Assembly: GCA_902790465.1 (NCBI GenBank)
Contig: CADASF010000019.1
Coordinates: forward strand, 1 to 35,630
DNA length: 35,630 nucleotides
Direction: 5' to 3'
DNA from: an uncultured bacterium
Lineage (GTDB): Bacteria > Vulcanimicrobiota > CADAWZ01
Shown: positions 8,812 through 35,630 of the stretch, one piece after another
Layout: every line of letters starts with the position of its first letter
Numbering within the stretch: the stretch's first letter is position 1
The notes under the pieces: generated by a model
Databases searched by the model: none
What the model was told of the DNA's origin: nothing
What the model saw: the letters and a program-made list of their open reading frames with translations, nothing else
Translations under genes and position numbers: made by a program

Positions 8812-8813
8812 TA

Positions 8814-9304: not shown

Positions 9305-9323
9305 TTTTATTTATTATGATATT

Positions 9324-10499: not shown

Positions 10500-10554
10500 C
10501 AAACAGATCCTCCTGAAAAAAATTAATAATTGCCTTCAAAATTTATGCAAATAC

Positions 10555-10709
10555 AATTCGCTTTTAAAAGAAAGATTCTATAAAATCAAATAAATTCGCT
10601 TTTAAAAGAAAAATTCTATAAAATCGAATATAATTCGCTTTTAAAAGAAAAATTCTATAAAATCGAATATAATTCGCTTTTAAAAGAAAAATTCTATAAA
10701 ATAAACCCT
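10555..10709. repeat. Four intergenic 39-bp tandem repeats
   Basis: Copies start at 10555, 10593, 10632 and 10671 (periods 38, 39, 39). Each reads AATTCGCTTTTAAAAGAAAA then ATTCTATAAAATCGAAT, with near-perfect identity between the last three. Every unit contains the palindrome CTTTTAAAAG and is bounded by ATTCG and CGAAT, which are inverted relative to each other. The array lies in the divergent region between the exported propeller gene (-) and tldD (+). There are no unique spacers, so it is not a CRISPR. An operator array, tandem promoters or a recently expanded AT-rich minisatellite all fit. Apart from this and the tldD leader I see nothing else in 10500-10844. Confidence 0.85.
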
Positions 10710-10844
10710 TTTCCTTTACTTAATAATATTTTTTTAGAAGGACTTCAAAACATTTTTATTAAATTAATAGTGAATATATCTAAATTATAATATTTACAGA
10801 TTGAAAAAGTTTTATATATACACTAAAATGGGAGGTAAGCAGTA

Positions 10845-12218
10845 TTGAAAGAGAAATTAGAAGAAGCTGTAAATACTCTCAGAGTTGATTATATGGATAT
10901 CCGAATTGAGGATAGACATGAGACGAGAATTCAATATCTTGGTAAAAAGTTAGAACAACTCGGAGAAACTGACAGCTTTGGTGGAACTGTCCGAGTCAGA
11001 GATAAAGGAAGATGGGGAATTGTCTCATTTACCGATATGGATGATTTTGATAAAAGTATTTTTCTTGCAGCAAGAGAAGCTAAGACTGGAAAATCTGAAG
11101 ATTACAAATTAGCTGAATCTCCTGCAGTTGAAGACTATGTAAAAAAGAGCATTTCTGCAGATTCTGATCCTATCAATATAAATATCGACGAAAAAGAAAA
11201 ACTTGTAAGAGATTACAATGATATGATTTTGTCCTCTGATAGAATCAATAATTCATCAGTTTTTTATAAAGATGTCGATGTAAAGAAATATTTTGTAAGT
11301 TCTGAGGGAACTTATGTTGAGCAGGACAGAACAGAATGTGGAATGTCTATTCAGGCCATTGCAAAAGACGGAACAAATGTTCAAAAATATGCAGATTCAC
11401 TCGGTGGAATAGATGGTTTTGGAGTTGTAAAAAATCTCGATGACAAGATAAAAGAGATTTCCGAAAAAGCAGCTTCACTACTCGATGCAAAACCTGCAAA
11501 AGGTGGTCATTTTGACTGTCTAATAGACCAGAGAATGGCAGGAACATTTATCCATGAAGCATTTGGACACATGAGTGAATCAGACCATATCTGTGGCAAT
11601 GATAAATTACAGAAAGAAATGATCCTAGGCAGAAAAATTGGAGCTGAAGCTCTTACAGCCATTGATGATGGAACCATGGAGCATGGAATGGGAACAAATA
11701 AATATGATGATGAAGGTGTACTCTGTCAGAAAAATTATTTGATAACAGATGGTAAAATTTCAGGTCGTCTCCATTCCAAAGACACAGCAGGCAAAATGGG
11801 TGAAAAAGTTTCAGGAAATGCTCGTGCAATTGACTTCAAATTTGAACCAATAGTCAGAATGACAAATACCTATATAGAACCTCGTGATTGGACATTTGAG
11901 GAAATGCTAGCAGGTATAGAAAATGGCTATTATGTAAAAGGTTCTCAAGGTGGAATGACAAATCTCGATGTATTTACATTCAGTGCTGGTGAGGCATACA
12001 AAGTTGAGAATGGAAAACTTGGTGAGAAAGTCAGAGATCTTACATTGACTGGAAATATTTTTGATACAATGAATCGTATTGACGCTATTGGAAATGATTT
12101 GATCATGTACAACAGTGGCGGAAGTGGCGGTTGTGGAAAAGCAGGTCAAGCTCCTTTGCCAATCGGAAGAGGAGGCCCACATTTAGTTATAAGAGATGTT
12201 ATTGTGGGAGGTCGTTAA
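10845..12218 (+). CDS. tldD: TldD metalloprotease subunit
   Basis: A 457-aa TldD, the catalytic subunit of the TldD/TldE zinc protease that degrades unfolded peptides and, in some bacteria, matures peptide antibiotics or removes leader peptides. The metal and catalytic motif is HEAFGH at residues 237-242, in MAGTFIHEAFGHMSESD. Other family marks are GGTVRVRDKGRWGIVSF near 45, DDEGVLCQKNYLITDGKISG near 287 and the C-terminal GGSGGCGKAGQAPLPIGRGG. The start is TTG at 10845, nine bases after GGGAGG. The tldE start follows the stop by one base, so the two are coupled. No peptide-precursor gene is seen in the immediate neighbourhood. The length is in the family's range. Confidence 0.94.
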   Translation: MKEKLEEAVNTLRVDYMDIRIEDRHETRIQYLGKKLEQLGETDSFGGTVRVRDKGRWGIVSFTDMDDFDKSIFLAAREAKTGKSEDYKLAESPAVEDYVKKSISADSDPININIDEKEKLVRDYNDMILSSDRINNSSVFYKDVDVKKYFVSSEGTYVEQDRTECGMSIQAIAKDGTNVQKYADSLGGIDGFGVVKNLDDKIKEISEKAASLLDAKPAKGGHFDCLIDQRMAGTFIHEAFGHMSESDHICGNDKLQKEMILGRKIGAEALTAIDDGTMEHGMGTNKYDDEGVLCQKNYLITDGKISGRLHSKDTAGKMGEKVSGNARAIDFKFEPIVRMTNTYIEPRDWTFEEMLAGIENGYYVKGSQGGMTNLDVFTFSAGEAYKVENGKLGEKVRDLTLTGNIFDTMNRIDAIGNDLIMYNSGGSGGCGKAGQAPLPIGRGGPHLVIRDVIVGGR

Positions 12219-12219
12219 T

Positions 12220-13530
12220 ATGGAAAAAGAAATTATTCAAAAAGCGATAAAACAATATGGCTGTGATGATGCAGAGTTATTTGTTGTAAAGATTGAAAAA
12301 TATCCTGTTTCATTTGAAGCAAGCAAATTGAAATCTGTAAAATCAAGATTGTTGAGAGGTTATAGCCTCCGTACAATAAAAAATGGCAGACTTGGTTTTT
12401 CATCTTGTACTTCTCTAAAAGACAATGGCGATAAGCTCATTGAATCGGCAATTTCTGCTGGTGAATTTGGACCAGTCGCAGAGTTTTCATTTTGGAAAGG
12501 TCAAAGATTCCCACAACCTGATGTATTTTTCCCAGAGACAGTAAGTTTTGAAATAGAAGAAGCAGAACTCATGGGAAGAAGAATTGTAAGAAGACTTAAT
12601 GAAATGCTCCCTGAAGCATATATTGATGTATCTGTTTCAAAGAGTTTCCAAGAAGTCTCTCACTATACATCAGAGACAGAAAAGACATATTATAAGAGTT
12701 TATTCTCACTTGGAGCAACATCTCTTACTGTTCGCTCAGGAGAACTTTTATATATAAATGAAGGAAAAGACAGTTGTACAATTCCTGAAGACCCAATGGC
12801 AATAATTGGAAATATCATTTGGAAAGAAAAAATGTCTCAAAATTCTGTTGAATGTCCTTCTAAACCTATGCAGGTTATATTCACACCAAAGACAATGCCT
12901 ATTCTTATGAAGGGATTCACAACAGGTCTTGCAGGTAGAAATGTCGCTTCTAAATCATCTCCACTTTCAGACAGAATTGGTGAGAAGATTCTTGATTCAA
13001 GAGTTTCTATCTATGATGATGGTATAATGTCAGCAGGTCCTGCTTCTGCTCCATTTGATGATGAAGGTGTTCCAAAACAGAGATTCCCACTTTTTGCAAA
13101 AGGAGTTTTGAAAAATTACTTCTTAGACCTTGCTTCTGCAGCAGCTCTCAAAACTGAACCAACAGGTTCTGCTGAAAGAAGATTTTTGGCAGCTCCTATT
13201 GCTGAACCTTCAAATTTGGTCATGGAACCAGGAAATACGGAATATGAGGACATGATCGAAAATATGGAAGATGGCTTGGTAATCGATCAAGTAATCGGTG
13301 GAGGACAGAGCAATCTTTTAAACGGCGAATTTTCAATGAATGTTGAACTCGGTTTTAGAGTTAAAAAAGGCAAAATCGTTGGAAGAGTTAGAAATACCAT
13401 GGTTGCAGGAAATGTCTATGAACTTTTCTCAGACAAAATAGAAGCTATTGGAAATAAATGCGAATCAGACGGAAGTGTATTTACACCTTATGTTTTGTTT
13501 AAAGATGTAAGTATTTCTGGAAGAGAGTAA
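12220..13530 (+). CDS. tldE: TldE/PmbA subunit
   Basis: A 436-aa TldE (PmbA), the non-catalytic partner of TldD; together they form a heterodimeric cage-like protease. It has the fold signatures of the family (RGYSLRTIKNGRLGFSSCTS near residue 40, SPLSDRIGEKILDSRVSIYD near 250, FDDEGVPKQRFPLFAKGVLK near 285, EFSMNVELGFRVKKGKIVGR near 390) and lacks HExxxH, as expected for TldE. The ATG at 12220 is chosen because GGGAGGT (12206-12212) lies eight bases upstream; the same frame is open back to 12196, inside tldD. It is the second gene of a two-gene operon closed by a strong terminator. Confidence 0.93.
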   Translation: MEKEIIQKAIKQYGCDDAELFVVKIEKYPVSFEASKLKSVKSRLLRGYSLRTIKNGRLGFSSCTSLKDNGDKLIESAISAGEFGPVAEFSFWKGQRFPQPDVFFPETVSFEIEEAELMGRRIVRRLNEMLPEAYIDVSVSKSFQEVSHYTSETEKTYYKSLFSLGATSLTVRSGELLYINEGKDSCTIPEDPMAIIGNIIWKEKMSQNSVECPSKPMQVIFTPKTMPILMKGFTTGLAGRNVASKSSPLSDRIGEKILDSRVSIYDDGIMSAGPASAPFDDEGVPKQRFPLFAKGVLKNYFLDLASAAALKTEPTGSAERRFLAAPIAEPSNLVMEPGNTEYEDMIENMEDGLVIDQVIGGGQSNLLNGEFSMNVELGFRVKKGKIVGRVRNTMVAGNVYELFSDKIEAIGNKCESDGSVFTPYVLFKDVSISGRE

Positions 13531-13545
13531 ATATTATAAAAAGGT

Positions 13546-13590
13546 AAAAATCCGCTTTTTTTATTTCAAAATAAAGAAGGCGGATTTTTC
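13546..13590 (+). terminator. Terminator of the tldD-tldE operon
   Basis: Stem AAAAATCCGC / GCGGATTTTT with an A/T-rich, partly paired interior and a trailing T-rich tract. Confidence 0.85.
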
Positions 13591-13633
13591 ATTTTTGTCT
13601 TTATTTATGACGAAATTGCAAGGTTTTATTATC

Positions 13634-13661
13634 TTGTTTTTGCTGAAAGTAATGTTATAAT
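13634..13661 (+). promoter_or_regulatory. Promoter of the 662-aa coiled-coil gene
   Basis: TTGTTT (13634-13639), a 16-bp spacer and TATAAT (13656-13661), 57 bp upstream of the TTG start. Confidence 0.5.
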
Positions 13662-13718
13662 TGTTATTATTAACTTGGTGATTAAATATTTGATATAAAT
13701 TATTGAGGGAGGAGACAA

Positions 13719-15707
13719 TTGGCAAAAGAATACTCACCATTAAAGCTAATTAAAAATAAAGTATATCCTTCTTATCAGCTGAGTGGTACTATTGAAGGAA
13801 ACAAAATTACAACAGAAGAAGCATTTAAAATCTGCATTCTGGAAACAATGTACTGGATACGGCAGAAATTTGAAAACATAGAAATTCCTGAAGAACTAAA
13901 ATCTGTTTTACCTCCACAGTATAAAGATTTTAGTCTAGAGAATATTCATTCTTTTTATCTAGATAGAGGCTATATTATAGAAGTAGTTTATCTAGATTCT
14001 GAAAAAAGCTGGAATTTTCAACTTGTCGAACCTGACCTTGGTGCTGGAGAAAACAAGCCTGTCGCAGGCAGAGTTTTTAGGACGGATATTTCATTTAGAA
14101 TTTTAAATAATGCTATTTTGTTTGCGTTTTCTACTATAGTTTCTGAACCAGAGAACTGCACAGAAACTGTTATCTCCTTACGTAATGGCGTAATTAAGCT
14201 CCTTGTAAGAAATTCTTTGTTGGATTTGTCACATGTTTCAATACCCATCAAAGAAGAATATTTTTCTTTAGATTCAGAAACTAGGCTGAAATTTATATCA
14301 CAGAGTATAGAAAACAAAGCAAGAACACTTCCATTGATTGTATTTGCAGAATATAAGAAAACAAAAGACAATCCAAAGACACAGAATATTGAAAACAAAG
14401 CAAAAAAGCGATTAAGTTTTGTATTAGCAGACAATAAAACAAAAGAAAAAACACCGTTAAATCAACAAAAAGAATTCGATTACTTAGGAGATATTTTTCA
14501 GAAAAAAAATATCTCTTTGGCTTCAGAACCTATCAAGACAGGATATTTATATGATTTAAACAACATTGCAAAGTCTTCAAAATCTATCAAGGCAGAAGAT
14601 TTATATGATTTAAACGACATTGCAAAGGCTTCAGAATCTATCAAGGCAGAATATTTATATGATTTAAACGATATTGCAAAAGATTTTATGGGATATGCAA
14701 TTATATATGGTCTTCCCTATGATAAAATAAAAGATTTTGTAAAAATTACCAAAGTTGAAATAAAACCAGGACAAGCCATTTTTTTTGAACCTCAAATGTA
14801 TGGAGATAAGACTATATATGATTGTTTTAAACAAAAAGAACAAGTACTCAACAGATTGCAGAAAATGAAAAAATATTATCGGTTGAAGAAAGATGCAATT
14901 TTTGATGAGAATATTTATTTTGTTCAGAAAGCAAAAATTTTAAATTTAGAAGAACTGCTTTCACGGTGTGATACATTAAATGAAAAAGCTGTTTTATATT
15001 CTAATATTCAAAAAGAACTCAAAAATCTAGAAAATGAGAATAAAGAGTTACAACAATATAAGACCAAAATCTCTATATTAGAAAATAAACTTGACGATGC
15101 AAAGCATAGCATTAAAAAATTAAATAAAAAGCTGGAAAGAGCTGAAGAACAACATAAACTTGAAATATCAAAACTCAACAAAACAAATGACCAACTCCAG
15201 ATTCAGGTAGATTATTATAAGTCATTAAAAAATCGTCCTACAACCCCTCAAGAGATTCCTAAATGGGTAAAGGACAATTTTTCCCAAACAATGGAACTGC
15301 ATAAAAGAGCTATTGATTTACTGGAAAAATTGCCATCTCATGAAGTAGATATGAAAAGAATGTGTGATTCTTTAGAATATCTTGCCAGAGAATACTATTT
15401 ATTTTATTATGCAAAAAAAATTACCGAAGACAAAGCTTTTTCAGATGCAAATTTAAAATATAACCAAAAATTCAATGTTACTTTTTCTGGCAATATGAGT
15501 ATCAAGGTACTCCCTAATGATTATAAAATTAGATTTGATAAACGGGATGGAAATGGAATCAAGGAATATCCTTTAAATATGCATTTAAAAACTGGTGTTG
15601 ATTCACAGTTTTTGATCAGAATCTATTTTCACTATGATGAATATAATAAAAAAATTATTGTTGGAAGTCTTCCAAAACATCTGCCCACTTACACACAGAA
15701 AACATAA
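13719..15707 (+). CDS. Unrecognised 662-aa protein with internal repeats and a coiled coil
   Basis: I do not recognise the family. Translation begins at TTG 13719, just after GGGAGGAG. Residues 1 to about 230 look like a compact globular domain (YPSYQLSGTIEGNKITTEEA, TMYWIRQKFENIEIP, FQLVEPDLGAG, PVAGRVFRTDISFRI). Residues 271-324 are three in-frame copies of an 18-aa unit, IKAEDLYDLNDIAKASES-like. A second folded segment follows (MGYAIIYGLPYDKIKDFVKI), then a heptad-like coiled coil at about 425-500 (ENENKELQQYKTKISILENK) and a strand-rich C-terminus with VTFSGNMSIKVLPNDYKIRF. There is no signal peptide or membrane span, so it should be cytoplasmic. It has its own promoter and lies upstream of the MYG1 and rtcB-prfH genes, but an inverted repeat separates them, so no shared role is implied. 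Confidence 0.85.
   Translation: MAKEYSPLKLIKNKVYPSYQLSGTIEGNKITTEEAFKICILETMYWIRQKFENIEIPEELKSVLPPQYKDFSLENIHSFYLDRGYIIEVVYLDSEKSWNFQLVEPDLGAGENKPVAGRVFRTDISFRILNNAILFAFSTIVSEPENCTETVISLRNGVIKLLVRNSLLDLSHVSIPIKEEYFSLDSETRLKFISQSIENKARTLPLIVFAEYKKTKDNPKTQNIENKAKKRLSFVLADNKTKEKTPLNQQKEFDYLGDIFQKKNISLASEPIKTGYLYDLNNIAKSSKSIKAEDLYDLNDIAKASESIKAEYLYDLNDIAKDFMGYAIIYGLPYDKIKDFVKITKVEIKPGQAIFFEPQMYGDKTIYDCFKQKEQVLNRLQKMKKYYRLKKDAIFDENIYFVQKAKILNLEELLSRCDTLNEKAVLYSNIQKELKNLENENKELQQYKTKISILENKLDDAKHSIKKLNKKLERAEEQHKLEISKLNKTNDQLQIQVDYYKSLKNRPTTPQEIPKWVKDNFSQTMELHKRAIDLLEKLPSHEVDMKRMCDSLEYLAREYYLFYYAKKITEDKAFSDANLKYNQKFNVTFSGNMSIKVLPNDYKIRFDKRDGNGIKEYPLNMHLKTGVDSQFLIRIYFHYDEYNKKIIVGSLPKHLPTYTQKT
14529..14690 (+). 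repeat. Three in-frame 54-bp tandem repeats
   Basis: Copies at 14529, 14583 and 14637 encode an 18-residue unit with core YDLNDIAK. The second and third copies are nearly identical at the DNA level, so the expansion is recent. Confidence 0.9.
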
Positions 15708-15718
15708 ATAGACAGATG

Positions 15719-15768
15719 TGTTGACATACTTCCCATAAATTTAGGGGCATTACGGTGCATTTCGGTAA
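15719..15768 (+). repeat. Left 50-bp inverted repeat flanking the MYG1 gene (IS200/IS605-like end)
   Basis: Starts TGTTGACATACTTCCCATAA and ends GTGCATTTCGGTAA. It matches the reverse complement of 16819-16868 at 46 of 50 positions. It contains the near-palindrome CCCATAAATTTAGGGG, which could form the subterminal hairpin that Y1 transposases recognise; that link is inference. It also supplies most of the MYG1 leader. Confidence 0.8.
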
Positions 15769-15792
15769 CTTTTTTCTGAAAGGAACAATTAA

Positions 15793-16632
15793 ATGATATT
15801 TTTTTCTAAGGGTATTACCCACAGTGGGGCATTTCATGCAGATGATGTCTTTGCAACAGCATTATTGAAAATAATAGAACCTTCTTTTACTGTGAAACGG
15901 GTTTTATCCGTTCCCGATAATGTAAAAGACTGTATTGTCTATGATATTGGCGGTGGTCCTTACGATCACCATGATAAGAACATTCGCTATCATGAAAATG
16001 GCAAAAGATATGCTTCTTTTGGACTACTATGGCGAGAATATGGAGAATATGTTACTGGTTCTTATGAGTCTTATAAACGCATTGAAGAAAATTTTGTTTC
16101 CATCATTGATGAATCGGACAACCTCGGAGAATATAACCCCATTTCTAGAACAATTACAGCTTTCAATCCAGTATGGAATAGTAAAGAAAATGTAGATGAT
16201 GCTTTTGAAGAAGCTGTTGCCTTTGCCAAATGTGTTCTTGAGAAAATTATACGACATGAACGTTCGATAGATTCTGCTGATGACGAAATTAAGAAGGCAA
16301 TTGTCAATATGAGAGATAAAATTGTCATTCTCCCACAAGAAATTCCTTTCACTGAAACGCTAATAAATTCAGAGGCAATTTTTGCAATATTTCCTTCAAA
16401 CCGAGGAGGATATTGTATTAGAGGAATTCCTGTGAAATATGGTACTCGTGTTACAAAGATGTCATTTCCTAAAGAATGGCGAGGAGAAACACCAGAAACA
16501 CTCCAGAAATTAAGTGGAAATGCAGATTTAGTATTTTGTCACAACAGTGGTTTTATAGCTTCAACAAATACTTATGAATCCGCAATTTTGATAGCAAAAC
16601 AAGTGATTAACTGTACTGCCCCTAAATTTTAA
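15793..16632 (+). CDS. MYG1-family (UPF0160) predicted metal-dependent hydrolase/exonuclease
   Basis: A 279-aa MYG1-family protein of the DHH-like superfamily. The eukaryotic relatives are 3'-5' RNA exonucleases of nucleus and mitochondria; bacterial members are uncharacterised. The family start THSGAFHADDVFATALLKI (His10, His15, Asp17) and VYDIGGGPYDHHD (near residues 50-60) supply the expected metal ligands. RYASFGLLWREYG, FNPVWN, the C-terminal EWRGETPETL and FCHNSGFIAS also fit. The length is slightly short of the usual 290-330. The ATG at 15793 follows AAAGGA. The gene is the only one between the 50-bp inverted repeats, so it may have travelled as cargo of a small element. It sits just upstream of the RNA-repair pair rtcB-prfH, which is suggestive but not proof of shared function. 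Confidence 0.9.
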   Translation: MIFFSKGITHSGAFHADDVFATALLKIIEPSFTVKRVLSVPDNVKDCIVYDIGGGPYDHHDKNIRYHENGKRYASFGLLWREYGEYVTGSYESYKRIEENFVSIIDESDNLGEYNPISRTITAFNPVWNSKENVDDAFEEAVAFAKCVLEKIIRHERSIDSADDEIKKAIVNMRDKIVILPQEIPFTETLINSEAIFAIFPSNRGGYCIRGIPVKYGTRVTKMSFPKEWRGETPETLQKLSGNADLVFCHNSGFIASTNTYESAILIAKQVINCTAPKF

Positions 16633-16667
16633 TAAGGTTCATTGTTTTCTATTAATTTGGAAATTCT

Positions 16668-16812
16668 GGGACTGTGAAAAAAAAAAGTAAATAGAGGCGA
16701 TGTCATTGCGAGGTAGCTATGCGACCGTGGCAATCTCATGCACTTTTTTATTAGCTAACACAATGAGTTAATTTACGAAAATTATATAAAAAAATATTTT
16801 TTTCACAGCCCC
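16668..16812. mobile_element. Small non-autonomous element (MITE-like) with GGGRCTGTGAAAA termini
   Basis: About 145 bp bounded by inverted repeats GGGACTGTGAAAAAAA (16668-16683) and TTTTTTTCACAGCCCC (16797-16812), one mismatch in 16. It has no coding capacity. Its interior carries one REP-like unit. Its right end abuts the right 50-bp repeat, and an isolated copy of that end sits at 1044-1066. With the following repeat it makes up most of the gene-free stretch 16633-16976. Confidence 0.65.
16695..16735 (+). repeat. Single REP-like unit
   Basis: TCATTGCGAGG, a short middle and CGACCGTGGCAATCTC match the left unit at 615-703 with its insertion removed. The upstream flank AAATAGAGGCGATG resembles TTTAGAGGAGAAG at 603-615, so the repeat extends about 12 bp to the left. 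Confidence 0.65.
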
Positions 16813-16818
16813 TTTTTT

Positions 16819-16868
16819 TTACCGAAACGCACTGTAATGTCCCTAAATTTATGGGGAGTATGTCAACA
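16819..16868 (-). repeat. Right 50-bp inverted repeat flanking the MYG1 gene
   Basis: TTACCGAAACGCACTGTAAT through to GGGGAGTATGTCAACA, the inverse partner of 15719-15768 (46 of 50 identical). It is in the same orientation as the interrupted third copy at 22345-22451. Confidence 0.8.
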
Positions 16869-16925
16869 ATAAAAATTGCTGTAATGATGGTAAAAGAGAT
16901 AGAAAGAGAGGAGATATATATATAA

Positions 16926-16967
16926 AAGGAGCATTGGGGCTCCTTAATTTTATAAAAAATTAAGGAG
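16926..16967 (+). promoter_or_regulatory. rtcB leader: two competing hairpins, one hiding the ribosome-binding site
   Basis: Three segments can pair in two exclusive ways. A = AAGGAGC (16926-16932), B = GCTCCTTAATTTT (16939-16951), C = AAAATTAAGGAG (16956-16967). A with B gives a 7-bp stem with a 6-base loop. B with C gives a perfect 12-bp stem with loop ATAA, and C contains the AAGGAG ribosome-binding site (16962-16967), nine bases before the rtcB ATG. B carries CTCCTT, the same sequence as the 16S rRNA anti-Shine-Dalgarno. There is no T-run, so it is not a terminator. Translational control is inferred from the pairing. Confidence 0.7.
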
Positions 16968-16976
16968 AAAAAATAT

Positions 16977-18125
16977 ATGAGAATTGAAGGAAAGTATAGT
17001 TCTGCAGAAGTTTTTACTGTAAATAATAAAGAAACAGCTATTGACCAGTATGCCATAGCACAATTACAGATGTTATGTGATAATCTTGTATCAAAAGATT
17101 CTGTAATAAAAGTAATGCCAGATGTTCATCCAGGAAAAGTATGTACTATTGGTTTGACTATGACTGTTGGAAATTCAATAATGCCACAAGTTGTGGGAAT
17201 AGATATAGGCTGTGGAATGACAATTTCACAGATCAGGACTAAAAAAATTGAATATCAAAAATTAGACACAGTCATAAGAGACAATGTCCCTTCAGGTTTT
17301 GCAGTGAGAAAAAAGCCACATTTAAAAGCAGATGATTTTGATTTATCTTCTTTAAAATGTATAAAACACATAAGAGAGGAAAACGCATTAAAAAGTCTTG
17401 GAACTCTTGGAGGGGGAAATCATTTCATAGAAGTAGGCAAAGATGAGGATTCCAATTTTTATGTAAATATACATTCTGGAAGCAGAAATCTTGGAAAAGA
17501 AGTTACAGAATATTATATGAAAGAAGGGCAGAAAATTTTAAAGGAACAAAATTTAGAAGTTCCGTATGAATTGACTTATCTTACAGATGAACTAAAGAAC
17601 GATTACATACATGATTTAAATATTGTTCAAGATTTTGCAAATTTAAATAGACAAATTATGATTGATGAACTTGTTAAAGGCATGAAATGGAAAGTTATCG
17701 ATCAGATAAATTGTATTCACAACTATATAGATTGTCGAAAAGAAACTGTTGATATATTATCTTCTCCTGTTCTCAGAAAGGGAGCTATTTCTGCATTGAA
17801 AGATGAAGATGTAATAATTCCAATAAATATGCGTGATGGTATAATTTTAGGAAAAGGTAAAGGCAATAAAAATTGGAATTGTTCAGCCCCTCATGGTTCA
17901 GGTAGAATTTTAAAAAGAGTTGATATAAAGGGAAAATATACTGTTTCTCATTATAAAACAGCTATGAAGGGAATTTATTCTCCAAGTATTAATTCAAATA
18001 CACTTGATGAAGCGCCATTTGCATATAGACCTATTGCTGAAATTCAAGATGCAATTTCTGAAACAGTTTCAATAGAGAAAGTAATTAAGCCAGTATATAA
18101 TTTTAAGGCTGGAGCAGAGGATTAA
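16977..18125 (+). CDS. rtcB: RtcB RNA ligase (short, PrfH-associated form)
   Basis: A 382-aa RtcB, the Mn2+/GTP-dependent ligase joining 2',3'-cyclic phosphate or 3'-phosphate RNA ends to 5'-OH ends. Visible active-site segments are MPDVHPGKVCTIGLT near residue 47, VGIDIGCGMT near 74-83 (metal Cys), LGTLGGGNHFIEV near 142, HSGSRNLG near 163, INCIHNYI near 244 (metal His) and SAPHGSGR near 306, whose His is the predicted guanylylation site. It is shorter than E. coli RtcB and is followed by prfH. This is the RtcB2-PrfH pairing, reported to religate 16S rRNA cut in the decoding centre. The start is ATG 16977 with AAGGAG inside a hairpin. No archease or RtcR is present. Confidence 0.94.
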   Translation: MRIEGKYSSAEVFTVNNKETAIDQYAIAQLQMLCDNLVSKDSVIKVMPDVHPGKVCTIGLTMTVGNSIMPQVVGIDIGCGMTISQIRTKKIEYQKLDTVIRDNVPSGFAVRKKPHLKADDFDLSSLKCIKHIREENALKSLGTLGGGNHFIEVGKDEDSNFYVNIHSGSRNLGKEVTEYYMKEGQKILKEQNLEVPYELTYLTDELKNDYIHDLNIVQDFANLNRQIMIDELVKGMKWKVIDQINCIHNYIDCRKETVDILSSPVLRKGAISALKDEDVIIPINMRDGIILGKGKGNKNWNCSAPHGSGRILKRVDIKGKYTVSHYKTAMKGIYSPSINSNTLDEAPFAYRPIAEIQDAISETVSIEKVIKPVYNFKAGAED

Positions 18126-18239
18126 GTGAAAGCCTTCCCTTGGGAAGGTTTGGAAGGGAAAAACAAATCTTAGCCTGCGTTAGCAGGCGTCCATATTTTC
18201 CCCTCAAAGATGAGGGGATAGGGGAGTTGAATTTTTTTT
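18126..18239. repeat. Hairpin-rich spacer between rtcB and prfH
   Basis: Three successive hairpins: CCTTCC-CTTG-GGAAGG (18133-18148), GCCTGC-GTTA-GCAGGC (18173-18188) and CCCCTCA-AAGA-TGAGGGG (18200-18217, 7-bp stem). The composition (CTTCCCTTGGGAAGG, GAGGGGATAGGGGAGTTGA) is G+C-richer than its surroundings and resembles small palindromic elements scattered in many bacterial genomes. None has a T-run typical of a terminator, so read-through into prfH is likely. Confidence 0.6.
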
Positions 18240-18827
18240 ATGAAGATACAATTAAGTTCGGGTTTAGGACCTAAAGAATGTAGATTAGCAGTTGCAAAAC
18301 TATTTGATTCACTATCAAAAGAATATAAAGACATAAAATTTATATCAGGAAGAACTGATGGAAATGATTGTTATTCATCAGTAATTTTTGAAACTGACAA
18401 TGATCTTTCATCACTTGAAGGGACTATTGAATGGATTTGTAAAAGTCCATATAGACCACATCATAAGAGAAAAAATTGGTTTGTTGATGTAAGTGTAATC
18501 AGAGATGAAGAAACAATAGATGAATCAGGAGAGATAAAATTTGAGAGATTTCACTGTGGGGGAAATGGCGGACAAAATGTAAATAAAGTCGAGACAGGTG
18601 TTAGACTTATTCATATCCCTACAGGTATCACAGTAACATCGACAGAAGAGAGAAATCAATTACAGAATAGAAGAAAAGCACTTGATAAGTTAAATAAGAG
18701 ATTGGAAGAAATCAATTATAAAATAGAAAGTAAAAATAAAAATAATGCTTGGAGAGAACATACTAAAATTGTAAGAGGAAATCCAGTTAGGATTTATGAA
18801 GGTATGAACTTTGCAAGGAAAATGTAA
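18240..18827 (+). CDS. prfH: Peptide chain release factor homologue PrfH
   Basis: A 195-aa class I release factor homologue of the PrfH type. The GGQ loop that triggers peptidyl-tRNA hydrolysis is in [16 protein letters not shown] near residue 108, followed by the conserved [20 protein letters not shown] and NRRKALDKL. The stop-codon recognition (PxT/SPF) domain of RF1/RF2 is missing and replaced by a shorter N-terminal part ([35 protein letters not shown]), as known for PrfH. PrfH releases the nascent peptide from ribosomes whose 16S rRNA was cut at the decoding centre so that RtcB can reseal it. The pairing with rtcB here is the classical one. The start is ATG 18240; its ribosome-binding site (GGGGAG) is placed rather far, about 13 bases upstream. 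Confidence 0.94.
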
Positions 18828-18872
18828 ATAGTGCTAATATACAAAAAATGATTCACAAGACAGAAGATATAT

Positions 18873-18903
18873 AAGCTGTGAAAATTTTTCATAGCTTTTT
18901 TTA
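18873..18903 (+). terminator. Terminator of the rtcB-prfH unit
   Basis: AAGCTGTGAA pairs with TTCATAGCTT (one G-U wobble) around a short A/T loop, followed by a T-run from 18896. Confidence 0.75.
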
Positions 18904-18988
18904 TTTTTTGTATTGTAAAAAAATAAACATTGTGCTAATATTTAAAGAATATAAAAAAAATAATATTATACATATCAAGGAGGATATT

Positions 18989-20326
18989 TTGGAAGCTACA
19001 CTGCCAATAGGTGGCTTTAGCAATGACATAGTTTCAATAATAATAGTCATTGTCTGTATATGCTTCGTTGCATTTTTTTCATCATCTGAGGCTTCACTTA
19101 TGTCTGCAAATAGAATAAAGTTGAAGAATCTCATTGAAAAAGGTGATAAAAATGCTATTTTGGTTGAGAAAATAGTTTCTCAACATGAACGATTATTTTC
19201 TACGATTCTCGCAACAGAGAACATGTTTATTATATTTGCCTCTACTTTTGTTGGAACGATTACAACGAAATATTTTGGAGATGGAAATGGTGTTATAATT
19301 TCTTCATTTATGATGACTATTTTTATTGTTATTTTTGGAGAGATTACACCAAAGACTTTTGCAGCACAACATGCTTTAAATATGGCTTTGATTGTCGCTC
19401 GTCCAATAAACTTTTTTATAACAATACTAAGCCCATTCATTTTTGTTTTATCTTCAATTTCAAAATTTATAATAAAATGTTTGGGGGTAAAGCCTGATTT
19501 AAATCCATATTATCTTTCTGAAGAAGAAATAAGAATGGTTATAAGTGATGGTGTTAAAGGTGGAGTTCTTGATAAGAAAGAGACAGAAATGCTTGAAGGC
19601 GTTTTTGATTTTTCTAAAAAGACTGCACAAGAAGTCATGGTTCCAAGAGTTCACATGGTTACAGTCGAGGAAGATGAGTCGATTTTTGATGTTTTAAAAA
19701 TAATAAACGAAACAGGTCATTCAAGAATTCCTGTTAGAAAAGAGACTCCTGACAATATAACAGGTGTTCTTTTTGCTAAAGATATATTGAAATATTATGA
19801 TAGAGATTTAAAGACTTTAAAAGTTTCTGAAATTGCAAGACAATGTCATTATGCTCCAGAGAGTATTTATATAATGAATTTATTAAATGAACTCAGAGAG
19901 AAAAAGACAAGTATCGCTATATTGATAGATGAATTTGGCGGAACTGCTGGTCTTGTAACAATAGATACTTTGATTGAAGAAATTGTTGGCGATATAGATG
20001 ACGAATTTGACAAAGAAGAGTTTGAATTTGAAAAACTTGAAAATGGTGATATTATAGTTAATGCTTCAATGACTGCTGATGATTTTACTGAAAAAGTTGG
20101 AATTGAATTGCCAGATGGTGATTATCAGACAGTTGGTGGTTTTGTAATTGATGAAATTGAAAAAATTCCTTCAAAAGGTGAATCTGTAAAATATGCCAAT
20201 AACGAATTTATTGTAGAAAAAACAGAAAATCATAGACTTACTAAAATAAGAGTTAAAAAATTGAAACAGGTTCAAAAAACAGTTGGAACAGATGATAAGA
20301 GAAAGGCTGTAAAGGGTGATAGCTAA
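18989..20326 (+). CDS. CNNM/CorC-HlyC family membrane protein (DUF21 + CBS pair + CorC_HlyC)
   Basis: A 445-aa 'hemolysin family' protein, likely a CNNM-type Mg2+/divalent-cation transporter of the inner membrane. The order is an N-terminal DUF21 membrane domain with about four hydrophobic spans (IVSIIIVIVCICFVAFFSSS, a segment around LATENMFIIFAST, MMTIFIVIFGEITPKTFA, FFITILSPFIFVLSSI), then two CBS domains (VMVPRVHMVTVEEDE; SRIPVR; FAKDILKYYD; ILIDEFGGTAGLVT), then a C-terminal CorC_HlyC domain (GDIIVNASMTADDF, YQTVGGFV). The frame is open further upstream, but I choose TTG 18989 because AAGGAGG (18977-18983) lies five bases before it and the upstream part overlaps the prfH terminator. It overlaps the RNase gene by 11 bases. 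Confidence 0.88.
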   Translation: MEATLPIGGFSNDIVSIIIVIVCICFVAFFSSSEASLMSANRIKLKNLIEKGDKNAILVEKIVSQHERLFSTILATENMFIIFASTFVGTITTKYFGDGNGVIISSFMMTIFIVIFGEITPKTFAAQHALNMALIVARPINFFITILSPFIFVLSSISKFIIKCLGVKPDLNPYYLSEEEIRMVISDGVKGGVLDKKETEMLEGVFDFSKKTAQEVMVPRVHMVTVEEDESIFDVLKIINETGHSRIPVRKETPDNITGVLFAKDILKYYDRDLKTLKVSEIARQCHYAPESIYIMNLLNELREKKTSIAILIDEFGGTAGLVTIDTLIEEIVGDIDDEFDKEEFEFEKLENGDIIVNASMTADDFTEKVGIELPDGDYQTVGGFVIDEIEKIPSKGESVKYANNEFIVEKTENHRLTKIRVKKLKQVQKTVGTDDKRKAVKGDS

Positions 20327-22451: not shown

Positions 22452-22566
22452 TTATTGAGGAAATTTTTCACATTATGCAAAAAATAAAAATTCTATAATA
22501 TTCATTAAAGTACAATTTGTTTAAAAAAAGTTAACAAAAATTGGTCAATAATTTCATATTTTTTTA

Positions 22567-22595
22567 TTGAATTATGAAAATAATCATGTTAAAAT
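22567..22595 (+). promoter_or_regulatory. Extended -10 promoter of the Gln/Met/His-rich protein gene
   Basis: TTGAAT (22567-22572), a 17-bp spacer and TAAAAT (22590-22595) with TG one base upstream of the -10 element. It shares TGTTAAAATAA with the toxin-antitoxin promoter at 1009-1037. Confidence 0.55.
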
Positions 22596-22663
22596 AATGC
22601 TAAGAATATCTTTATGTTTTTACAGGTATTTGTTAAAACATAAAAATGCAAGGAGTTTAAAAA

Positions 22664-24643
22664 ATGATTAGTGGTAACTATTTTAGTACAAACAATTTTA
22701 ACACTGGAAATTATGTAGGTGGTACAAAAACTAATGTTTTTGATGTCATCCAGAAACAGCAAGAAGAGCAGAAAGCACAACAAGCTGCACAACAGCAAGC
22801 TCAACAGGCTCAAACACCAAAGCAACCACAGCAAGCAGCTCCAGCTCAATCTTCAGCTCCAGTACAGACTACAGCTCCTGTACAGGAAGAAACTGTTTGT
22901 GAAAACACAAATACAACTGAGACAGTAGAAAATAACTACAGTGATATTCACCATCATCACCATCATCATCACAATCGTTTTCATCGTTGTTGCCATCATC
23001 ATCACAATATGTTCCACAATCCTGAATATCAGACAAGATATATCGGTGCATTTTCTTCATATATGGGACAAATTGGTGGTAATTTCTCATTCGGTATGAA
23101 TGGTTTTGCTTATGGCAATATGGGAATGATGGGAATGCAGCCAATGCAACCAATGCAACCAATGGGTGGCATGTATATGAACATGGGAATGAACATGAAC
23201 ATGACAGGTATGTACGGCATGGGAATGGCTCAACAGTTCAATGATATTCCAACCTTCTGCTGTGGAAGATATGAAGGTATTCAAAATGTTTCTCTTCTTG
23301 ACAACATCATGTCAAAATATCGTGGGCTTGCATATTCACCAGAACAAATGGGACTCAATATGTCATCACCATCTGCAATTTCTTCATTCCAATTTATGCC
23401 AATGAATTTCCCAAATGTTGGTTCTTCAGCATTTAACTTTGCAATGACAGGTCAAATGCCACAGTTCTCAGGTAATACTTCAGAGATGATAAGTCAAATG
23501 ACAAGTACTCTTGATGAATTGAAAAACATGAAGGGTGAGATGGGAATCAATTTAGGTCAACTTGAATCTCAGATTGCAACTCTTGAACAACAGCTTGAAG
23601 CATTAAAAGCAGAAGAACAACAGCTTCAGGGTGCAAAACAGCAAAAAGAACATGAGAAACAGCATATTACCTCTGAGCAGACAAAACAGAAAAATACTCA
23701 GACACAATTAAATAATGAATCCCAAAAATTGTCTCAGACAAATCAGCAACTTACCGAAAGTATTACATCTCTTACCGAAAGTATTACAGCAAATAAAACT
23801 GCTCTACAATCTCTTGAAGCATCTGCAACAGCAGCAACATTGAATCCTGCTGCAGAAGCTGCTCTTCAAGCACAGATTGCTTCTCTTAAAACTCAGATTG
23901 CAACAAGCCAAGTCATGCTCAATCAGCAAAAAGCTCAGTTAGAGCAAGTTAAAGCACAACAACAGGCAAATCAGCAACAGCTTCAGAATGTTGCTCAACT
24001 TCTTCAACAGCTCGACACAAAACTTCAGAATGTCAATAATGATATTACTAATATTGATAATAGATTGGGTACTGTTAAAGAAGAAATTTCAGCCCTTACT
24101 GAAAAAGTAAATGAAGGATTGAATTTTGTCGTTGAAAGAAGAAGTGAAAGTGGAATGATTGGTGCAAGAACAAATTTCTTGAACATGTTCAACAATTCAG
24201 CTAATTCAATGCTCAGCAATCTTGGCAATTTTGGAATGGGTGGTCAGATGGGCCAGGTAGGTCAGATGGGCCAGATGGGTCAGGTTTCATCACTTGCTGA
24301 TTTAAATTCCAATTTGTCAAATTTGATTTCACAGTTGACAAATAATGGTAATTCATTAAATATTGGAATGTCTCTCCTCGGTGGCAATCCAATAACAAGT
24401 TTGGGAGTAACAGGTGGACAATTTGGAGCTTTTGAACGCAATCTATTGAATTATGCAAATGGAACAACAGGACAATTTGGAGCAATTGGAAGCAATGCTT
24501 ATGCTTTTGGTGGAGCTCATGAAGCAGGTAAAATAGGTACAGATTTCTTCAAATTCGGTGGCGACTCAATATTTGGCTTCAAAGGTTTGAGTTCAGCATT
24601 CAATGGATTGATTGGTCTTCAATCTATAGCAAGTCTTTTCTAA
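22664..24643 (+). CDS. Gln/Met/His-rich coiled-coil protein, function unknown
   Basis: A 659-aa low-complexity protein that I cannot assign. Residues 27-70 are Gln/Ala/Pro-rich (QEEQKAQQAAQQQAQQAQTP). Residues about 95-122 hold eight consecutive His, then CCHHHHNMFH. Residues 140-190 are Met/Gly-rich (MGMMGMQPMQPMQPMGGMYM). Residues about 280-485 are a long Gln/Glu/Lys coiled coil (LESQIATLEQQLEALKAEEQ and onward). The C-terminal third is Gly/Asn/Met-rich with GGQMGQVGQMGQMGQ. There is no signal peptide and no transmembrane span. The His/Cys and Met clusters could bind Ni, Cu or Zn ions. It is monocistronic, with a strong promoter, AAGGAG ribosome-binding site and terminator, implying high expression. 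A filament-forming or scaffold role is possible but unproven. Confidence 0.88.
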   Translation: MISGNYFSTNNFNTGNYVGGTKTNVFDVIQKQQEEQKAQQAAQQQAQQAQTPKQPQQAAPAQSSAPVQTTAPVQEETVCENTNTTETVENNYSDIHHHHHHHHNRFHRCCHHHHNMFHNPEYQTRYIGAFSSYMGQIGGNFSFGMNGFAYGNMGMMGMQPMQPMQPMGGMYMNMGMNMNMTGMYGMGMAQQFNDIPTFCCGRYEGIQNVSLLDNIMSKYRGLAYSPEQMGLNMSSPSAISSFQFMPMNFPNVGSSAFNFAMTGQMPQFSGNTSEMISQMTSTLDELKNMKGEMGINLGQLESQIATLEQQLEALKAEEQQLQGAKQQKEHEKQHITSEQTKQKNTQTQLNNESQKLSQTNQQLTESITSLTESITANKTALQSLEASATAATLNPAAEAALQAQIASLKTQIATSQVMLNQQKAQLEQVKAQQQANQQQLQNVAQLLQQLDTKLQNVNNDITNIDNRLGTVKEEISALTEKVNEGLNFVVERRSESGMIGARTNFLNMFNNSANSMLSNLGNFGMGGQMGQVGQMGQMGQVSSLADLNSNLSNLISQLTNNGNSLNIGMSLLGGNPITSLGVTGGQFGAFERNLLNYANGTTGQFGAIGSNAYAFGGAHEAGKIGTDFFKFGGDSIFGFKGLSSAFNGLIGLQSIASLF

Positions 24644-24673: not shown

Positions 24674-24704
24674 AAAGGAAGGTTTATACAACCTTCCTTT
24701 TTTT
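24674..24704 (+). terminator. Terminator of the Gln/Met/His-rich protein gene
   Basis: A perfect 11-bp stem AAAGGAAGGTT / AACCTTCCTTT with loop TATAC and a T-run. Confidence 0.9.
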
Positions 24705-24722
24705 CACGGTTGGAAAGAAATT

Positions 24723-25532
24723 ATGTATAAATTTGTTGAAAAAAATAATATAAAAATATTGAAATTTGATATTCTTGAATCTTTTGGAATTACAGAACAT
24801 TATTATTCATTGAGAAATGGTGGTGTTAGTTCCCCTCCTTTTAATTCTTTAAATTTGGGGCTTCATACAACTGATAAACCTGAAAATGTTATTGCCAATA
24901 GAAAACTTCTTGAAGAAAATTTTTCTATTCCTGTAAGAGATGTGATAAAACTCGAACATGGAGATAAAATATTGCCAATTTATGATGATAAAATTCCAAG
25001 TGAAATTCCGTTTGCAGATGGTATTATGACAAATGTGAAAAATGTTCCATTATCTATTTTTTATGCAGATTGTACAGGAATTTTTATTCTAGACCCTGTA
25101 AAAGAAGTTATTGCGTTAGTTCATGCAGGTTGGAGGGGGACATTAAAAGCTATTGCTTTAAAAACTGTAAAAGCAATGAATAGAGAATATGGAACAAATC
25201 CTAAAGATTGTGTTTCTGCTATTTGTCCTTCTATAGGTCCATGTTGTTTTGAAGTTACTGAAGATACTGCAGATCTATTTTTAAATAGTTTTAATTCTTA
25301 TTATCCTCAAAGTTTTTTGAAGGATTTATCTCTGTGTATCTCTAAAAATAATAAGGGGTATTTTGTCAATCTTTGGAATTTAAATAAAATACAGCTTTTA
25401 TGTGCAGGTTTGAAATCTGACAATATTGTTTCATCAAATATTTGTACTTCATGTCATAATGATTTATTTTTTTCATATCGCAAAGAAAATAGAGTTACTG
25501 GGCGTATGGGAGCTGTGTTTATGTTAATATAG
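24723..25532 (+). CDS. pgeF: Peptidoglycan editing factor PgeF (YfiH/laccase-domain family)
   Basis: A 269-aa multicopper-polyphenol-oxidase-type protein of the YfiH family. In E. coli PgeF removes wrongly incorporated L-Ser from the UDP-MurNAc peptide; other homologues act as purine nucleoside phosphorylases. Conserved zinc-site segments are YSLRNGGVSSPPFNSLNLGL near residue 27, KLEHGDK near 78 (His), SIFYADCTGIFI near 109 (Cys), ALVHAGWRGTLKAI near 132 (His), ICPSIGPCCFEV near 167 and the end motif FSYRKENRVTGRMGA. The length is typical. The ribosome-binding site is weak (GGAAAG). The response-regulator gene begins 26 bases after the stop, so it may be co-transcribed with the regulatory genes. 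Confidence 0.9.
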   Translation: MYKFVEKNNIKILKFDILESFGITEHYYSLRNGGVSSPPFNSLNLGLHTTDKPENVIANRKLLEENFSIPVRDVIKLEHGDKILPIYDDKIPSEIPFADGIMTNVKNVPLSIFYADCTGIFILDPVKEVIALVHAGWRGTLKAIALKTVKAMNREYGTNPKDCVSAICPSIGPCCFEVTEDTADLFLNSFNSYYPQSFLKDLSLCISKNNKGYFVNLWNLNKIQLLCAGLKSDNIVSSNICTSCHNDLFFSYRKENRVTGRMGAVFMLI

Positions 25533-33983: not shown

Positions 33984-34060
33984 TTCTCTATATACTATTT
34001 ACAAATGAGAATTTAGCGTGATGTTATTTTATATTGAAAATCTTTGGAGGTATTTATATT

Positions 34061-35630
34061 ATGATGAATCAAACTATTAATATAAATGTGATGTATCAAA
34101 TAAATAATGTTGGAATTGACTATGTTCCTCAGAGCTTTTTTAGTAACTATTTTATGCAAATGATGATGCATGTGCAGATGATGCAAATACAGATGCAAAT
34201 GATGCAGATACTCCAAAGAATGGCTGAGAAGTCTTTACTTATTATTGGAAGTGGTCAATTTAGACAAATGCCTTTATTTCCAAATTTTTCTTCTCAAGTA
34301 AAAGGTAAATTTCAAGTTTCTTCAAGTTCAAAACAAGTTTCTTCTTCTCAAGTAAAAGATAATTCTCAGGTTTCTTCAAGTTCAAAACAAGTTTCTTTTT
34401 CTCAAGTAAAAGATAATTCTCAGATTTCTTCAAGTTCAAAACAAGTTTCTTCTTCTCAAGTAAAAGATAATTCTCAGGTTTCTTCAAGTTCAAAACAGGT
34501 TTTTTCTTCTCAAGTAAAAGATAATTCTCAGGTTTCTTCAAGTTCTCATGTAAGTAAGGCAAAAGTTAAAAGTTCTGTGAGAACGAAAACTTCGGAAAAA
34601 GTCACAAATATATTCAATAAAATAGGTGTAGATGTTAAAAATAATTTTGTTGCTCCAATAGCTAACAAAGTTAGTAGATATGGATCGAAATTTGCTAATT
34701 CAATTGTTGCTTATTTAGGTGGTAAAGTTACTGGTGAAACTTTATGGTCTACTCCTAATGTTCAACAGCCTGCTCAAAATGTATCTCCTCAATATACAAC
34801 TTCTAATACTCAATTATCAATTCAAGGTTCACCTTCACAATCTGTTCCTAAATCTCAGCAGTCAGTTCAAGGTGGTGCTTCCTATTCAACTTCTAATGCA
34901 CAACTGTCAATTCAAGGTTCCCGTTCACAGTTTGTTCCTAAATTTAAGCAGTCAGTTCAAGATTCATTTTCAATAGGTAGTCAGTCTGATAAATCATCAA
35001 GTATAGATATGGAAGATAAAGCTGTAGAAGTTGATGGTTGGTTGCTTAGGAATGATTTTGATAATAAAAATGATATTACCAAAGAAGTTTCTAAAAAGGT
35101 GGATCTGAATTCTAATATTGATATAGAGATTATTGCTGAAGCAATTTTTGAAAAAGTTGAGCAGAATTCTAATATTGATATAGATTCTATTGTAAAAATA
35201 ATTTCTGAAAAAATTAAGCAGGGTTCTAATATTGATATAGATTCTATTGTAAAAGAGATGTCTGAAAAAGTTGAGCAAGGTTCTAATACCGATCAGAATT
35301 CTAAAGTATCTCAGGGCTCAGTCCAAATAGATGGTCAATATCCTCAAAATAATTATGAATATCAACAAGTATCTCAGGGCTCAGTCCAAATAGATGGTCA
35401 ATATCCTCAAAATAATTATGGATATCAACAAGTATCTCAGGGTTCAGTTCAAATAGATGGTCAATATCCTCAAAATAATTATGGATACCAACAAGTATCT
35501 CAGGGTTCAGTCCAAATAGATGGTCAATATCCTCAAAATAATTATGGATATCAACAAGTATCTCAGGGTTCAGTCCAAATAGATGGTCAATATGCTCAAA
35601 ATAATTATGGATATCAACAAGTACCTCAAG
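34061..35630 (+). CDS. Low-complexity repeat protein, open at the window edge
   Basis: A frame open from ATG 34061 to the last base (523 codons), so the gene is 3'-truncated by the window. TGGAGG lies eleven bases upstream of the first ATG; a second ATG follows at once. The protein has a Met/Gln-rich front (FMQMMMHVQMMQIQMQMMQI), then four repeat families in turn: 18-aa Ser/Gln/Lys repeats, two 30-aa repeats, three 19-aa NIDIDSIVK-type helical repeats, and at least five 21-aa VSQGSVQIDGQYPQNNYGY repeats that run off the window. Between the first two lies a non-repetitive stretch (VTNIFNKIGVDVKNNFVAPI). There are no Cys residues, signal peptide or membrane span in the part seen. The function is unknown; an extended surface, matrix or filament protein is a guess from composition. 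Confidence 0.88.
   Translation, partial: MMNQTININVMYQINNVGIDYVPQSFFSNYFMQMMMHVQMMQIQMQMMQILQRMAEKSLLIIGSGQFRQMPLFPNFSSQVKGKFQVSSSSKQVSSSQVKDNSQVSSSSKQVSFSQVKDNSQISSSSKQVSSSQVKDNSQVSSSSKQVFSSQVKDNSQVSSSSHVSKAKVKSSVRTKTSEKVTNIFNKIGVDVKNNFVAPIANKVSRYGSKFANSIVAYLGGKVTGETLWSTPNVQQPAQNVSPQYTTSNTQLSIQGSPSQSVPKSQQSVQGGASYSTSNAQLSIQGSRSQFVPKFKQSVQDSFSIGSQSDKSSSIDMEDKAVEVDGWLLRNDFDNKNDITKEVSKKVDLNSNIDIEIIAEAIFEKVEQNSNIDIDSIVKIISEKIKQGSNIDIDSIVKEMSEKVEQGSNTDQNSKVSQGSVQIDGQYPQNNYEYQQVSQGSVQIDGQYPQNNYGYQQVSQGSVQIDGQYPQNNYGYQQVSQGSVQIDGQYPQNNYGYQQVSQGSVQIDGQYAQNNYGYQQVPQ
34280..34549 (+). repeat. Five 54-bp repeats (18 aa)
   Basis: Copies at 34280 (diverged), 34334, 34388, 34442 and 34496. The unit reads QVSSSQVKDNSQVSSSSK; the middle three differ at very few bases. 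Confidence 0.93.
34796..34975 (+). repeat. Two 90-bp repeats (30 aa)
   Basis: Copies at 34796 and 34886 share STSNxQLSIQGS, a Ser/Gln/Val-Pro-Lys segment and QQSVQ- or KQSVQ-type ends. They are more diverged than the other families. Confidence 0.85.
35111..35281 (+). repeat. Three 57-bp repeats (19 aa)
   Basis: Copies at 35111, 35168 and 35225 of SNIDIDSIVKxxSEKVEQG. Hydrophobic residues are spaced as in an amphipathic helix. Confidence 0.9.
35306..35630 (+). repeat. 63-bp repeats (21 aa), five complete plus a partial
   Basis: Copies at 35306, 35369, 35432, 35495 and 35558 and the start of another at 35621. The unit is VSQGSVQIDGQYPQNNYGYQQ, nearly identical between copies. The array continues past the window. 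Confidence 0.95.

What the first reader, a model, noticed from the sequence alone, without database searches (positions are those of the whole stretch)
22664..24643. Highly expressed-looking protein joining a poly-His/Cys patch, Met-rich patch and 200-residue coiled coil
Strong extended -10 promoter, good ribosome-binding site and perfect terminator around a protein of very skewed composition (eight His in a row, then CCHHHH; MQPMQPMQPM). Metal storage on a filament or scaffold is one idea. Similar skew (Met/Gln front, repeats) appears in the gene at 34061, suggesting a class of such proteins in this organism.
Basis: partly seen in the sequence, partly recalled or inferred. Interest (0 to 1): 0.52.

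Follow-up and report, generated by a model that had tools for sequence, protein, structure and literature searches.

The report
Metal-binding-headed coiled-coil hairpin protein
An uncultured bacterium related to gut bacteria of cattle and horses carries a conserved, previously unnamed protein that joins a histidine, cysteine and methionine-rich head to a long stiff helical hairpin; it looks like a building or scaffold protein, possibly exported by a flagellum-derived secretion machine, but its job is untested.

Summary
ORF 22664-24643 (659 aa) has eight His in a row, CCHHHH, a 57-residue stretch with 17 Met, and a long coiled coil. It is a real, selected gene: orthologues occur in all 4 genomes of its GTDB family and in full length nowhere else among 149 genomes of its phylum. 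The metal-ligand head is among the better conserved parts (patch 9-14 His and 2-6 Cys; Met region 24-30% Met; a second CC pair), while linkers and tail drift. The extended -10 promoter, no better than chance by scanning, is conserved in all four species. The coil is predicted as a two-arm antiparallel hairpin with a conserved Pro turn. It is homologous to coils ending in a transglycosylase domain elsewhere in the phylum, and more weakly to a paralogue in the same genome. No Sec signal or membrane helix is seen by hydropathy. The genome has a flagellar-type export apparatus, but no flagellin was found and only three FlgC/F/G-type rod proteins, plus many Sec-less enzymes with Asn/Ser/Gln-rich N-termini. 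I favour an exported, metal-cross-linkable scaffold or spike, with moderate confidence. High expression and metal storage are untested. The gene at 34034 belongs to a different multi-copy family.

The parts
22531..22536 (+). TTAACA element upstream of the promoter
   Evidence: present in 4 of 4 aligned upstream regions; function unknown
22567..22595 (+). extended -10 promoter TTGAAT-17-TAAAAT
   Evidence: not above chance by scan; conserved in 4 of 4 orthologues by reading the rows
22650..22655 (+). ribosome-binding site AAGGAG
   Evidence: sequence
22664..24643 (+). whole gene, 659 aa
   Evidence: orthologues
22664..22747 (+). N-terminal segment aa 1-28, Asn/Ser/Thr-rich, no Sec signal by hydropathy
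22748..22939 (+). Gln/Ala/Pro linker aa 29-92, variable (19-45% identity)
22940..23074 (+). His/Cys patch plus EYQ..AF..YMGQ motif, aa 93-137 (51-89% identity)
23075..23245 (+). Met/Gly/Asn/Tyr-rich region aa 138-194
   Evidence: 14-19 Met per 57-68 residues in 4 of 4
23246..23329 (+). second CC pair and GIQNVSLLDNIM motif, aa 195-222
   Evidence: 61-64% identity
23330..23476 (+). Ser-rich linker aa 223-271
23477..23833 (+). coiled-coil arm 1, aa 272-390
   Evidence: AlphaFold; 3.5-residue periodicity
23834..23845 (+). hinge with Pro, aa 391-394
   Evidence: hinge Pro conserved in all 9 aligned coils
23846..24232 (+). coiled-coil arm 2, aa 395-523, ending in the conserved KVNEGLN-VVERR segment
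24233..24640 (+). Gly/Asn/Ser-rich C-tail aa 524-659, variable, last residue Phe in 4 of 4
24674..24705 (+). intrinsic terminator, 11-bp stem then T run
24723..25532 (+). downstream neighbour, Cu-oxidase_4 (PgeF/YfiH) gene, next to this gene in all 4 species

Best explanation
A lineage-specific structural protein. Shown: a conserved gene; a conserved His/Cys/Met ligand head; a long two-arm coiled coil homologous to other Sec-less coils of the phylum; no Sec signal or membrane helix by hydropathy. Predicted: the coil folds back at a Pro turn into a rod of about 17 nm (119-129 residues per arm at 0.15 nm each), so the ligand head and the Gly-rich tail lie at the same end and the turn is the free tip. 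Inferred: the head binds soft or borderline metal ions (Cu, Zn or Ni) and, with the sticky Met/Gly/Asn/Tyr region, cross-links the rods into a layer, spike or matrix. Inferred with less certainty: the protein leaves the cell without Sec, most likely through the flagellum-derived type III export apparatus, and works at the cell surface or in its surroundings.
For: Orthologues in 4 of 4 genomes of the family, 48-59% identical to the target; ligand patches kept while linkers and tail drift; promoter footprint kept. Hairpin: helices 272-390 and 395-523, pLDDT mostly 74-98; best PDB match an SMC coiled-coil fragment, TM-score 0.93 by target length, E 1.1e-3; 3.5-residue periodicity in both arms; a paralogue predicted the same way, 219-359 / 365-505. 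Homology beyond coil composition to the G004 coil-SLT protein: z 14-21 over three kinds of shuffle, no shuffle of 400 reaching it in any, E 2e-28. Export: no hydrophobic segment, maximum 19-residue hydropathy 1.16; FHIPEP export gate in 11 of 11 genomes tested; flagellin in 0 of 6; FliF, FliK, rod and Sec-less SLT proteins in one gene row. N-terminal composition: 15, 17, 3 and 6 of 365 background ORFs score as high for the four orthologues (target, G001, G003, G002). M91 effector-type proteases show the same distribution: 4 of 4 family genomes, 0 of 7 others.
Against: No tool measured export, metal binding or assembly. The N-terminal score was trained on 11 proteins, 10 of which I picked from a list ranked by similar residues, so it is partly circular. 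The G004 and G005 coil-SLT relatives do not score (180 and 208 of 365 background ORFs reach them), though the start codons used there are uncertain. The M91 protein scanned carries RTX repeats, which as a rule go with type I secretion (recalled). The gene's constant neighbour is PgeF, not a secretion gene. AlphaFold gives the head (1-230) and tail no confident fold and pTM is 0.42. Many cytosolic coils also lack Sec signals.
Confidence: 0.38

Rival explanations
1. A cytoplasmic scaffold: a coiled-coil rod with low-complexity ends that self-assembles or forms condensates inside the cell and organises cell pole, division or envelope synthesis; metal binding is incidental or structural.
For: No Sec signal; coiled coil with disordered, low-complexity ends; neighbours are housekeeping genes (RNase R, PgeF, response regulator); weak hits to crescentin and SMC coils.
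Against: Crescentin 15.6 bits against a cut-off of 100 and SMC 42 against 567, so membership fails. Two homologous coils carry a C-terminal transglycosylase domain, which acts on the cell wall outside the cytoplasm.
Confidence: 0.3
2. A metal-storage, chaperone or detoxification protein (Ni, Cu or Zn).
For: His, Cys and Met patches conserved in 4 of 4; Met-rich MxM patterns resemble Cu(I) ligands (recalled).
Against: No metal-handling gene recognised next to it in the window (reading); PgeF acts on purine nucleosides or peptidoglycan precursors by recall despite its 'Cu-oxidase' name. Much of the protein is a 250-residue hairpin, which storage would not need. No known storage family was found.
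Confidence: 0.12
3. A translocator, tip or appendage part of the flagellum-derived type III machine itself, standing in for the missing hook and filament.
For: Export gate, rod and FliK genes without flagellin, and no Flg_bbr_C protein beyond FlgC, FlgF and FlgG types; coil hairpin without Sec signal.
Against: The export gate occurs in genomes of the phylum that lack this gene; the gene is not in the machine's gene rows.
Confidence: 0.1
4. A low-complexity ORF with no conserved function, its tracts being replication-slippage products.
For: Repeat-like tracts; the G001 copy has an expanded Met/Pro repeat.
Against: Intact, 48-59% identical orthologues with invariant motifs in 4 of 4 genomes and a conserved promoter.
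Confidence: 0.02

Closest known systems
SMC/Rad50-type antiparallel coiled-coil hairpin
   Same: predicted two-arm hairpin; best PDB match 5nnv, TM-score 0.93 by target length
   Different: no ATPase or hinge domain; SMC_prok_B 42 bits against a cut-off of 567
Coil-SLT proteins of the same phylum (G004, G005; unnamed)
   Same: homologous coil with a Pro turn; G004 keeps a deiminase-like gene nearby that is 54% identical to the gene before the G002 orthologue
   Different: they end in a PF01464 transglycosylase domain and no match to the His/Cys/Met head was found in them
Flagellar and type III exported muramidases and scaffolds (FlgJ-like; recalled)
   Same: Sec-less proteins with a low-complexity N-terminus; the genome encodes a Sec-less SLT protein beside FliK-type and other flagellar genes
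   Different: this protein has no catalytic domain and lies outside those gene rows
His-rich or Met-rich metal-handling proteins (LarC-like loops, Hpn, Cu-binding Met motifs; recalled)
   Same: dense His and Met ligands
   Different: no shared domain found; attached to a long coiled coil

Membership tests
SMC/Rad50 ATPases | Walker-type ATPase heads and score above the curated cut-off | tested here: not met
   42.3 bits against 567.35, coil region only
Crescentin / bacterial intermediate filaments | Rod_CreS above the gathering score | tested here: not met
   15.6 against 100 bits
Coil-SLT proteins of the phylum | homologous coiled coil | tested here: met
   E 6e-21 and 2e-28; z 14-21 over shuffles for G004
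Coil-SLT proteins of the phylum | C-terminal SLT domain | tested here: not met
   no SLT match in the target; present in L006 and L007
Type III (flagellar-type) secreted proteins | export apparatus present in the genome | tested here: met
   FHIPEP, FliF, FliM, FliK and rod proteins
Type III (flagellar-type) secreted proteins | no Sec signal, N-terminus of export type | tested here: inconclusive
   no Sec signal by hydropathy; composition score in the top 1-5% of 365 ORFs, from a small and partly circular training set
Type III (flagellar-type) secreted proteins | export depends on the apparatus | not testable with these tools
   needs an experiment
Metal-binding proteins | conserved clustered ligands | tested here: met
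   9-14 His and 2-6 Cys in the patch, a second CC pair, 14-19 Met in 4 of 4
Metal-storage proteins | stoichiometric binding and a known storage fold | tested here: inconclusive
   no known storage family found; binding not testable here

The most novel reading that the evidence does not exclude
A gut bacterial family has turned a flagellum into a secretion device without hook or filament that delivers M91 and clostripain-type enzymes and builds, from this protein and its hairpin paralogue, a metal-cross-linked coiled-coil layer or spike at the cell surface: a new kind of metal-hardened bacterial appendage or matrix.
Probability: 0.15. Interest if true: 0.78.

Novelty: new variant of a known kind. 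Interest (0 to 1): 0.47.

Why it matters
It names a conserved protein family that none of the libraries searched describes, shows that its striking tracts are under selection rather than slippage, and points to a testable idea: flagellum-derived export without hook or filament in gut bacteria, with effector-type proteases and exported coiled-coil structures. A published sheep study links rumen type III secretion genes, most of them from unidentified bacteria, with methane yield (PMC5549432, passages only); whether this lineage contributes is unknown.

Tried and rejected
A search for relatives in viral contigs, phages and plasmids found none. The single-protein scan of genome contigs found none; the alignment scan found three named records, which by equal contig lengths are the contigs of G001-G003. 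PHROGs, NCBIfam and PDB sequence searches gave only coil-type matches, below the curated cut-offs where such exist. The promoter scan alone is no evidence. Codon adaptation was dropped as uninformative. The promoter motif was sought in 0.53 Mb of the genome and in its full form found only at this gene, so no shared regulon was seen. The gene at 34034 was compared and is unrelated. Conserved linkage to PgeF was first read as functional, but it is the head of a longer conserved gene block, and several other phylum loci viewed have a radical-SAM gene before PgeF instead, so I count it as shared descent only. The phylum's name was not determined; Riflebacteria was a guess used for paper searches, not a result. 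Paper searches for flagellin-less type III export, for a named relative genome and for metal-rich coils gave nothing on this family; only listings were seen, except passages of PMC7509429 and PMC5549432.

Full report
What is there. The window is a whole contig (G000:C19, 35,630 bases). The ORF at 22664-24643 encodes 659 aa. Its order is: an Asn/Ser/Thr-rich start; a Gln/Ala/Pro linker; a patch with eight His, then CCHHHH; a Met/Gly/Asn/Tyr region; a CC pair with GIQNVSLLDNIM; a long coiled coil; and a Gly/Asn/Ser tail that ends in Phe. Against 376 ORFs sampled from the same genome it is the richest in Gln and third in Met, and its His run of 8 compares with 3 for the next. The densest His window belongs to another protein (L063), which looks like a LarC-type nickel protein (recalled).

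Is it real? Yes. A search of 149 genomes of the phylum finds full-length relatives in the 4 genomes of the GTDB family, one of them the window's own, and only a coil match in G004 (G005 had a weak match and none at the threshold). The three others are public records: RUG13696, CO.B36.metabat-bins.133 and Horse_feces333, so the family is at least partly from gut material (horse by its title; RUG as rumen genome is recalled; the origin of CO.B36 was not looked up). Identity to the target is 59, 49 and 48%. Region by region, the His/Cys patch with its EYQ/YMGQ motif is 89, 53 and 51% identical and the CC/GIQNVSLLDNIM motif 64, 61 and 61%, against 45, 31 and 19% for the linker and 49, 16 and 12% for the tail. 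The Met region itself is 58, 51 and 40% identical but keeps 24-30% Met in all. The long unbroken His run is a feature of the two same-genus species; the other two keep a His/Cys-dense patch instead.

Signals. Its conservation is the better argument: TTAACA, TTGAAT, a 17-18 nt spacer, ATGnTA(A/T)AAT and AAGAATAT can be read in all four upstream regions (in the G002 row the -35 is displaced by an alignment gap and was read by eye). Intergenic DNA that keeps these blocks at such protein divergence is likely functional. The terminator region folds at -15.9 kcal/mol, z -3.5. Nothing here measures expression.

Fold. AlphaFold with four sequences gives two long helices, 272-390 and 395-523, with pLDDT mostly 74-98 through the arms, and no confidence for 1-230 and 522-659. 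Foldseek's best match is an SMC coiled-coil fragment (5nnv_D, TM-score 0.93 by target length, 1.6 A), but no match passes E 0.001, and such hairpins match many unrelated coils. Both arms show a period of 3.45-3.5 residues. The hinge Pro is invariant in nine aligned coils. In that alignment the family lacks seven residues in each arm relative to the G004 coil-SLT protein, as expected of paired arms, though this depends on gap placement. The geometry puts head and tail at one end and the turn at the other.

Relatives. G004 and G005 encode coils that end in a transglycosylase SLT domain. For the G004 coil none of 400 shuffles reaches the real score in any of three designs, z 14-21; for G005 none does, z 7.6-10.4; for the paralogue of the same genome z is 3.5-6.1 and 3 of 400 local shuffles reach it, so that last homology is probable only. 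The gene before the G002 orthologue is a deiminase-like gene (PAD_porph just under its cut-off); its 54% identical relative lies two genes before the coil-SLT gene in G004, which supports common descent. The paralogue (L117 6960-9608 in G000; also in G001 and G002) is predicted as a hairpin with 141-residue arms turning at NPYT.

Export context. The genome carries FliM, FliN- to FlhA-type genes in a row (FliM and FlhA by family, the others by reading) and, elsewhere, genes read as FlgB, FlgC, FliE, FliF, FliG, FliH, FliI and FliJ, then a Sec-less SLT protein and FliK (FliF, FliK, SLT and a rod domain by Pfam, the other names by reading and recall). Flagellin is found in 0 of 6 genomes, and only three Flg_bbr_C proteins occur in G000, which fits rod proteins without hook or hook-associated protein; FlgE, FlgK and FliD were not searched one by one, and one further hook/rod-like protein lies before FliM (L050 4963-5787, LlgE_F_G_D1). 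Many enzymes without Sec signals have Asn/Ser/Gln-rich N-termini: clostripain (C11) and a tandem row of M91 'effector protein' proteases, the one scanned having RTX repeats. M91 occurs in 4 of 4 family genomes (8, 7, 1 and 2 matches) and in 0 of 7 others tested, the same distribution as our protein. The four orthologues score in the top 1-5% of 365 background N-termini in a composition model (15, 17, 3 and 6 at or above target, G001, G003 and G002). That model is weak: 11 training proteins, mostly chosen from a list ranked by similar residues, and the coil-SLT proteins do not score. RTX repeats may instead point to type I secretion. So export is an inference, and the type III route a guess within it.

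Mechanism. The most economical reading is a rod with a ligand-rich, sticky end: metal ions bridging His/Cys/Met clusters of several molecules would bind rods by one end into a brush, spike or layer. His, Cys and Met together suggest no single metal. Storage would not need a conserved 250-residue hairpin. A cytoplasmic scaffold remains nearly as likely.

The gene at 34034. It is unrelated to our protein. Its first 120 residues recur in short proteins of G000 and G001 with a Met/Gln-rich start, most with a Gly-zipper-like end.

Verdict. Confirmed observation, real and conserved family, function unproven. Scores: interest 0.47; probability of the most novel reading 0.15.

Noticed in passing
34034-35629 and L126-L129: The 34034 gene runs off the contig and shares a Met/Gln/Asn/Tyr-rich N-terminus with about 150-210 aa proteins in G000 and G001; three of the four seen have a Gly-zipper-like end finishing in FFGF: a separate multi-copy family.
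   Followed up: partly
L050 (G000:C8), L122 (G000:C2), L057 (G000:C7): Flagellar-type export, rod and switch genes without flagellin (0 of 6 genomes) and with only three Flg_bbr_C proteins.
   Followed up: partly
L060 (G000:C11) 4700-19829: Eight tandem genes for M91 effector-type proteases; the one scanned also has RTX repeats; the family is in 4 of 4 family genomes and 0 of 7 others.
   Followed up: partly
G004 and G018: Many FHIPEP matches (14 and 17), most covering only the C-terminal half: apparent expansion of export-gate C-domains in large genomes of the phylum.
   Followed up: no
L117 6960-9608; L119 4832-7498; L118 6962-9439: Paralogous 825-888 aa hairpin proteins, Gln/Lys/Asn-rich, without a Sec signal by hydropathy.
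   Followed up: partly
L122 12111-12503: Small protein with an apparent signal peptide and a His/Asp-rich stretch in the same genome.
   Followed up: no
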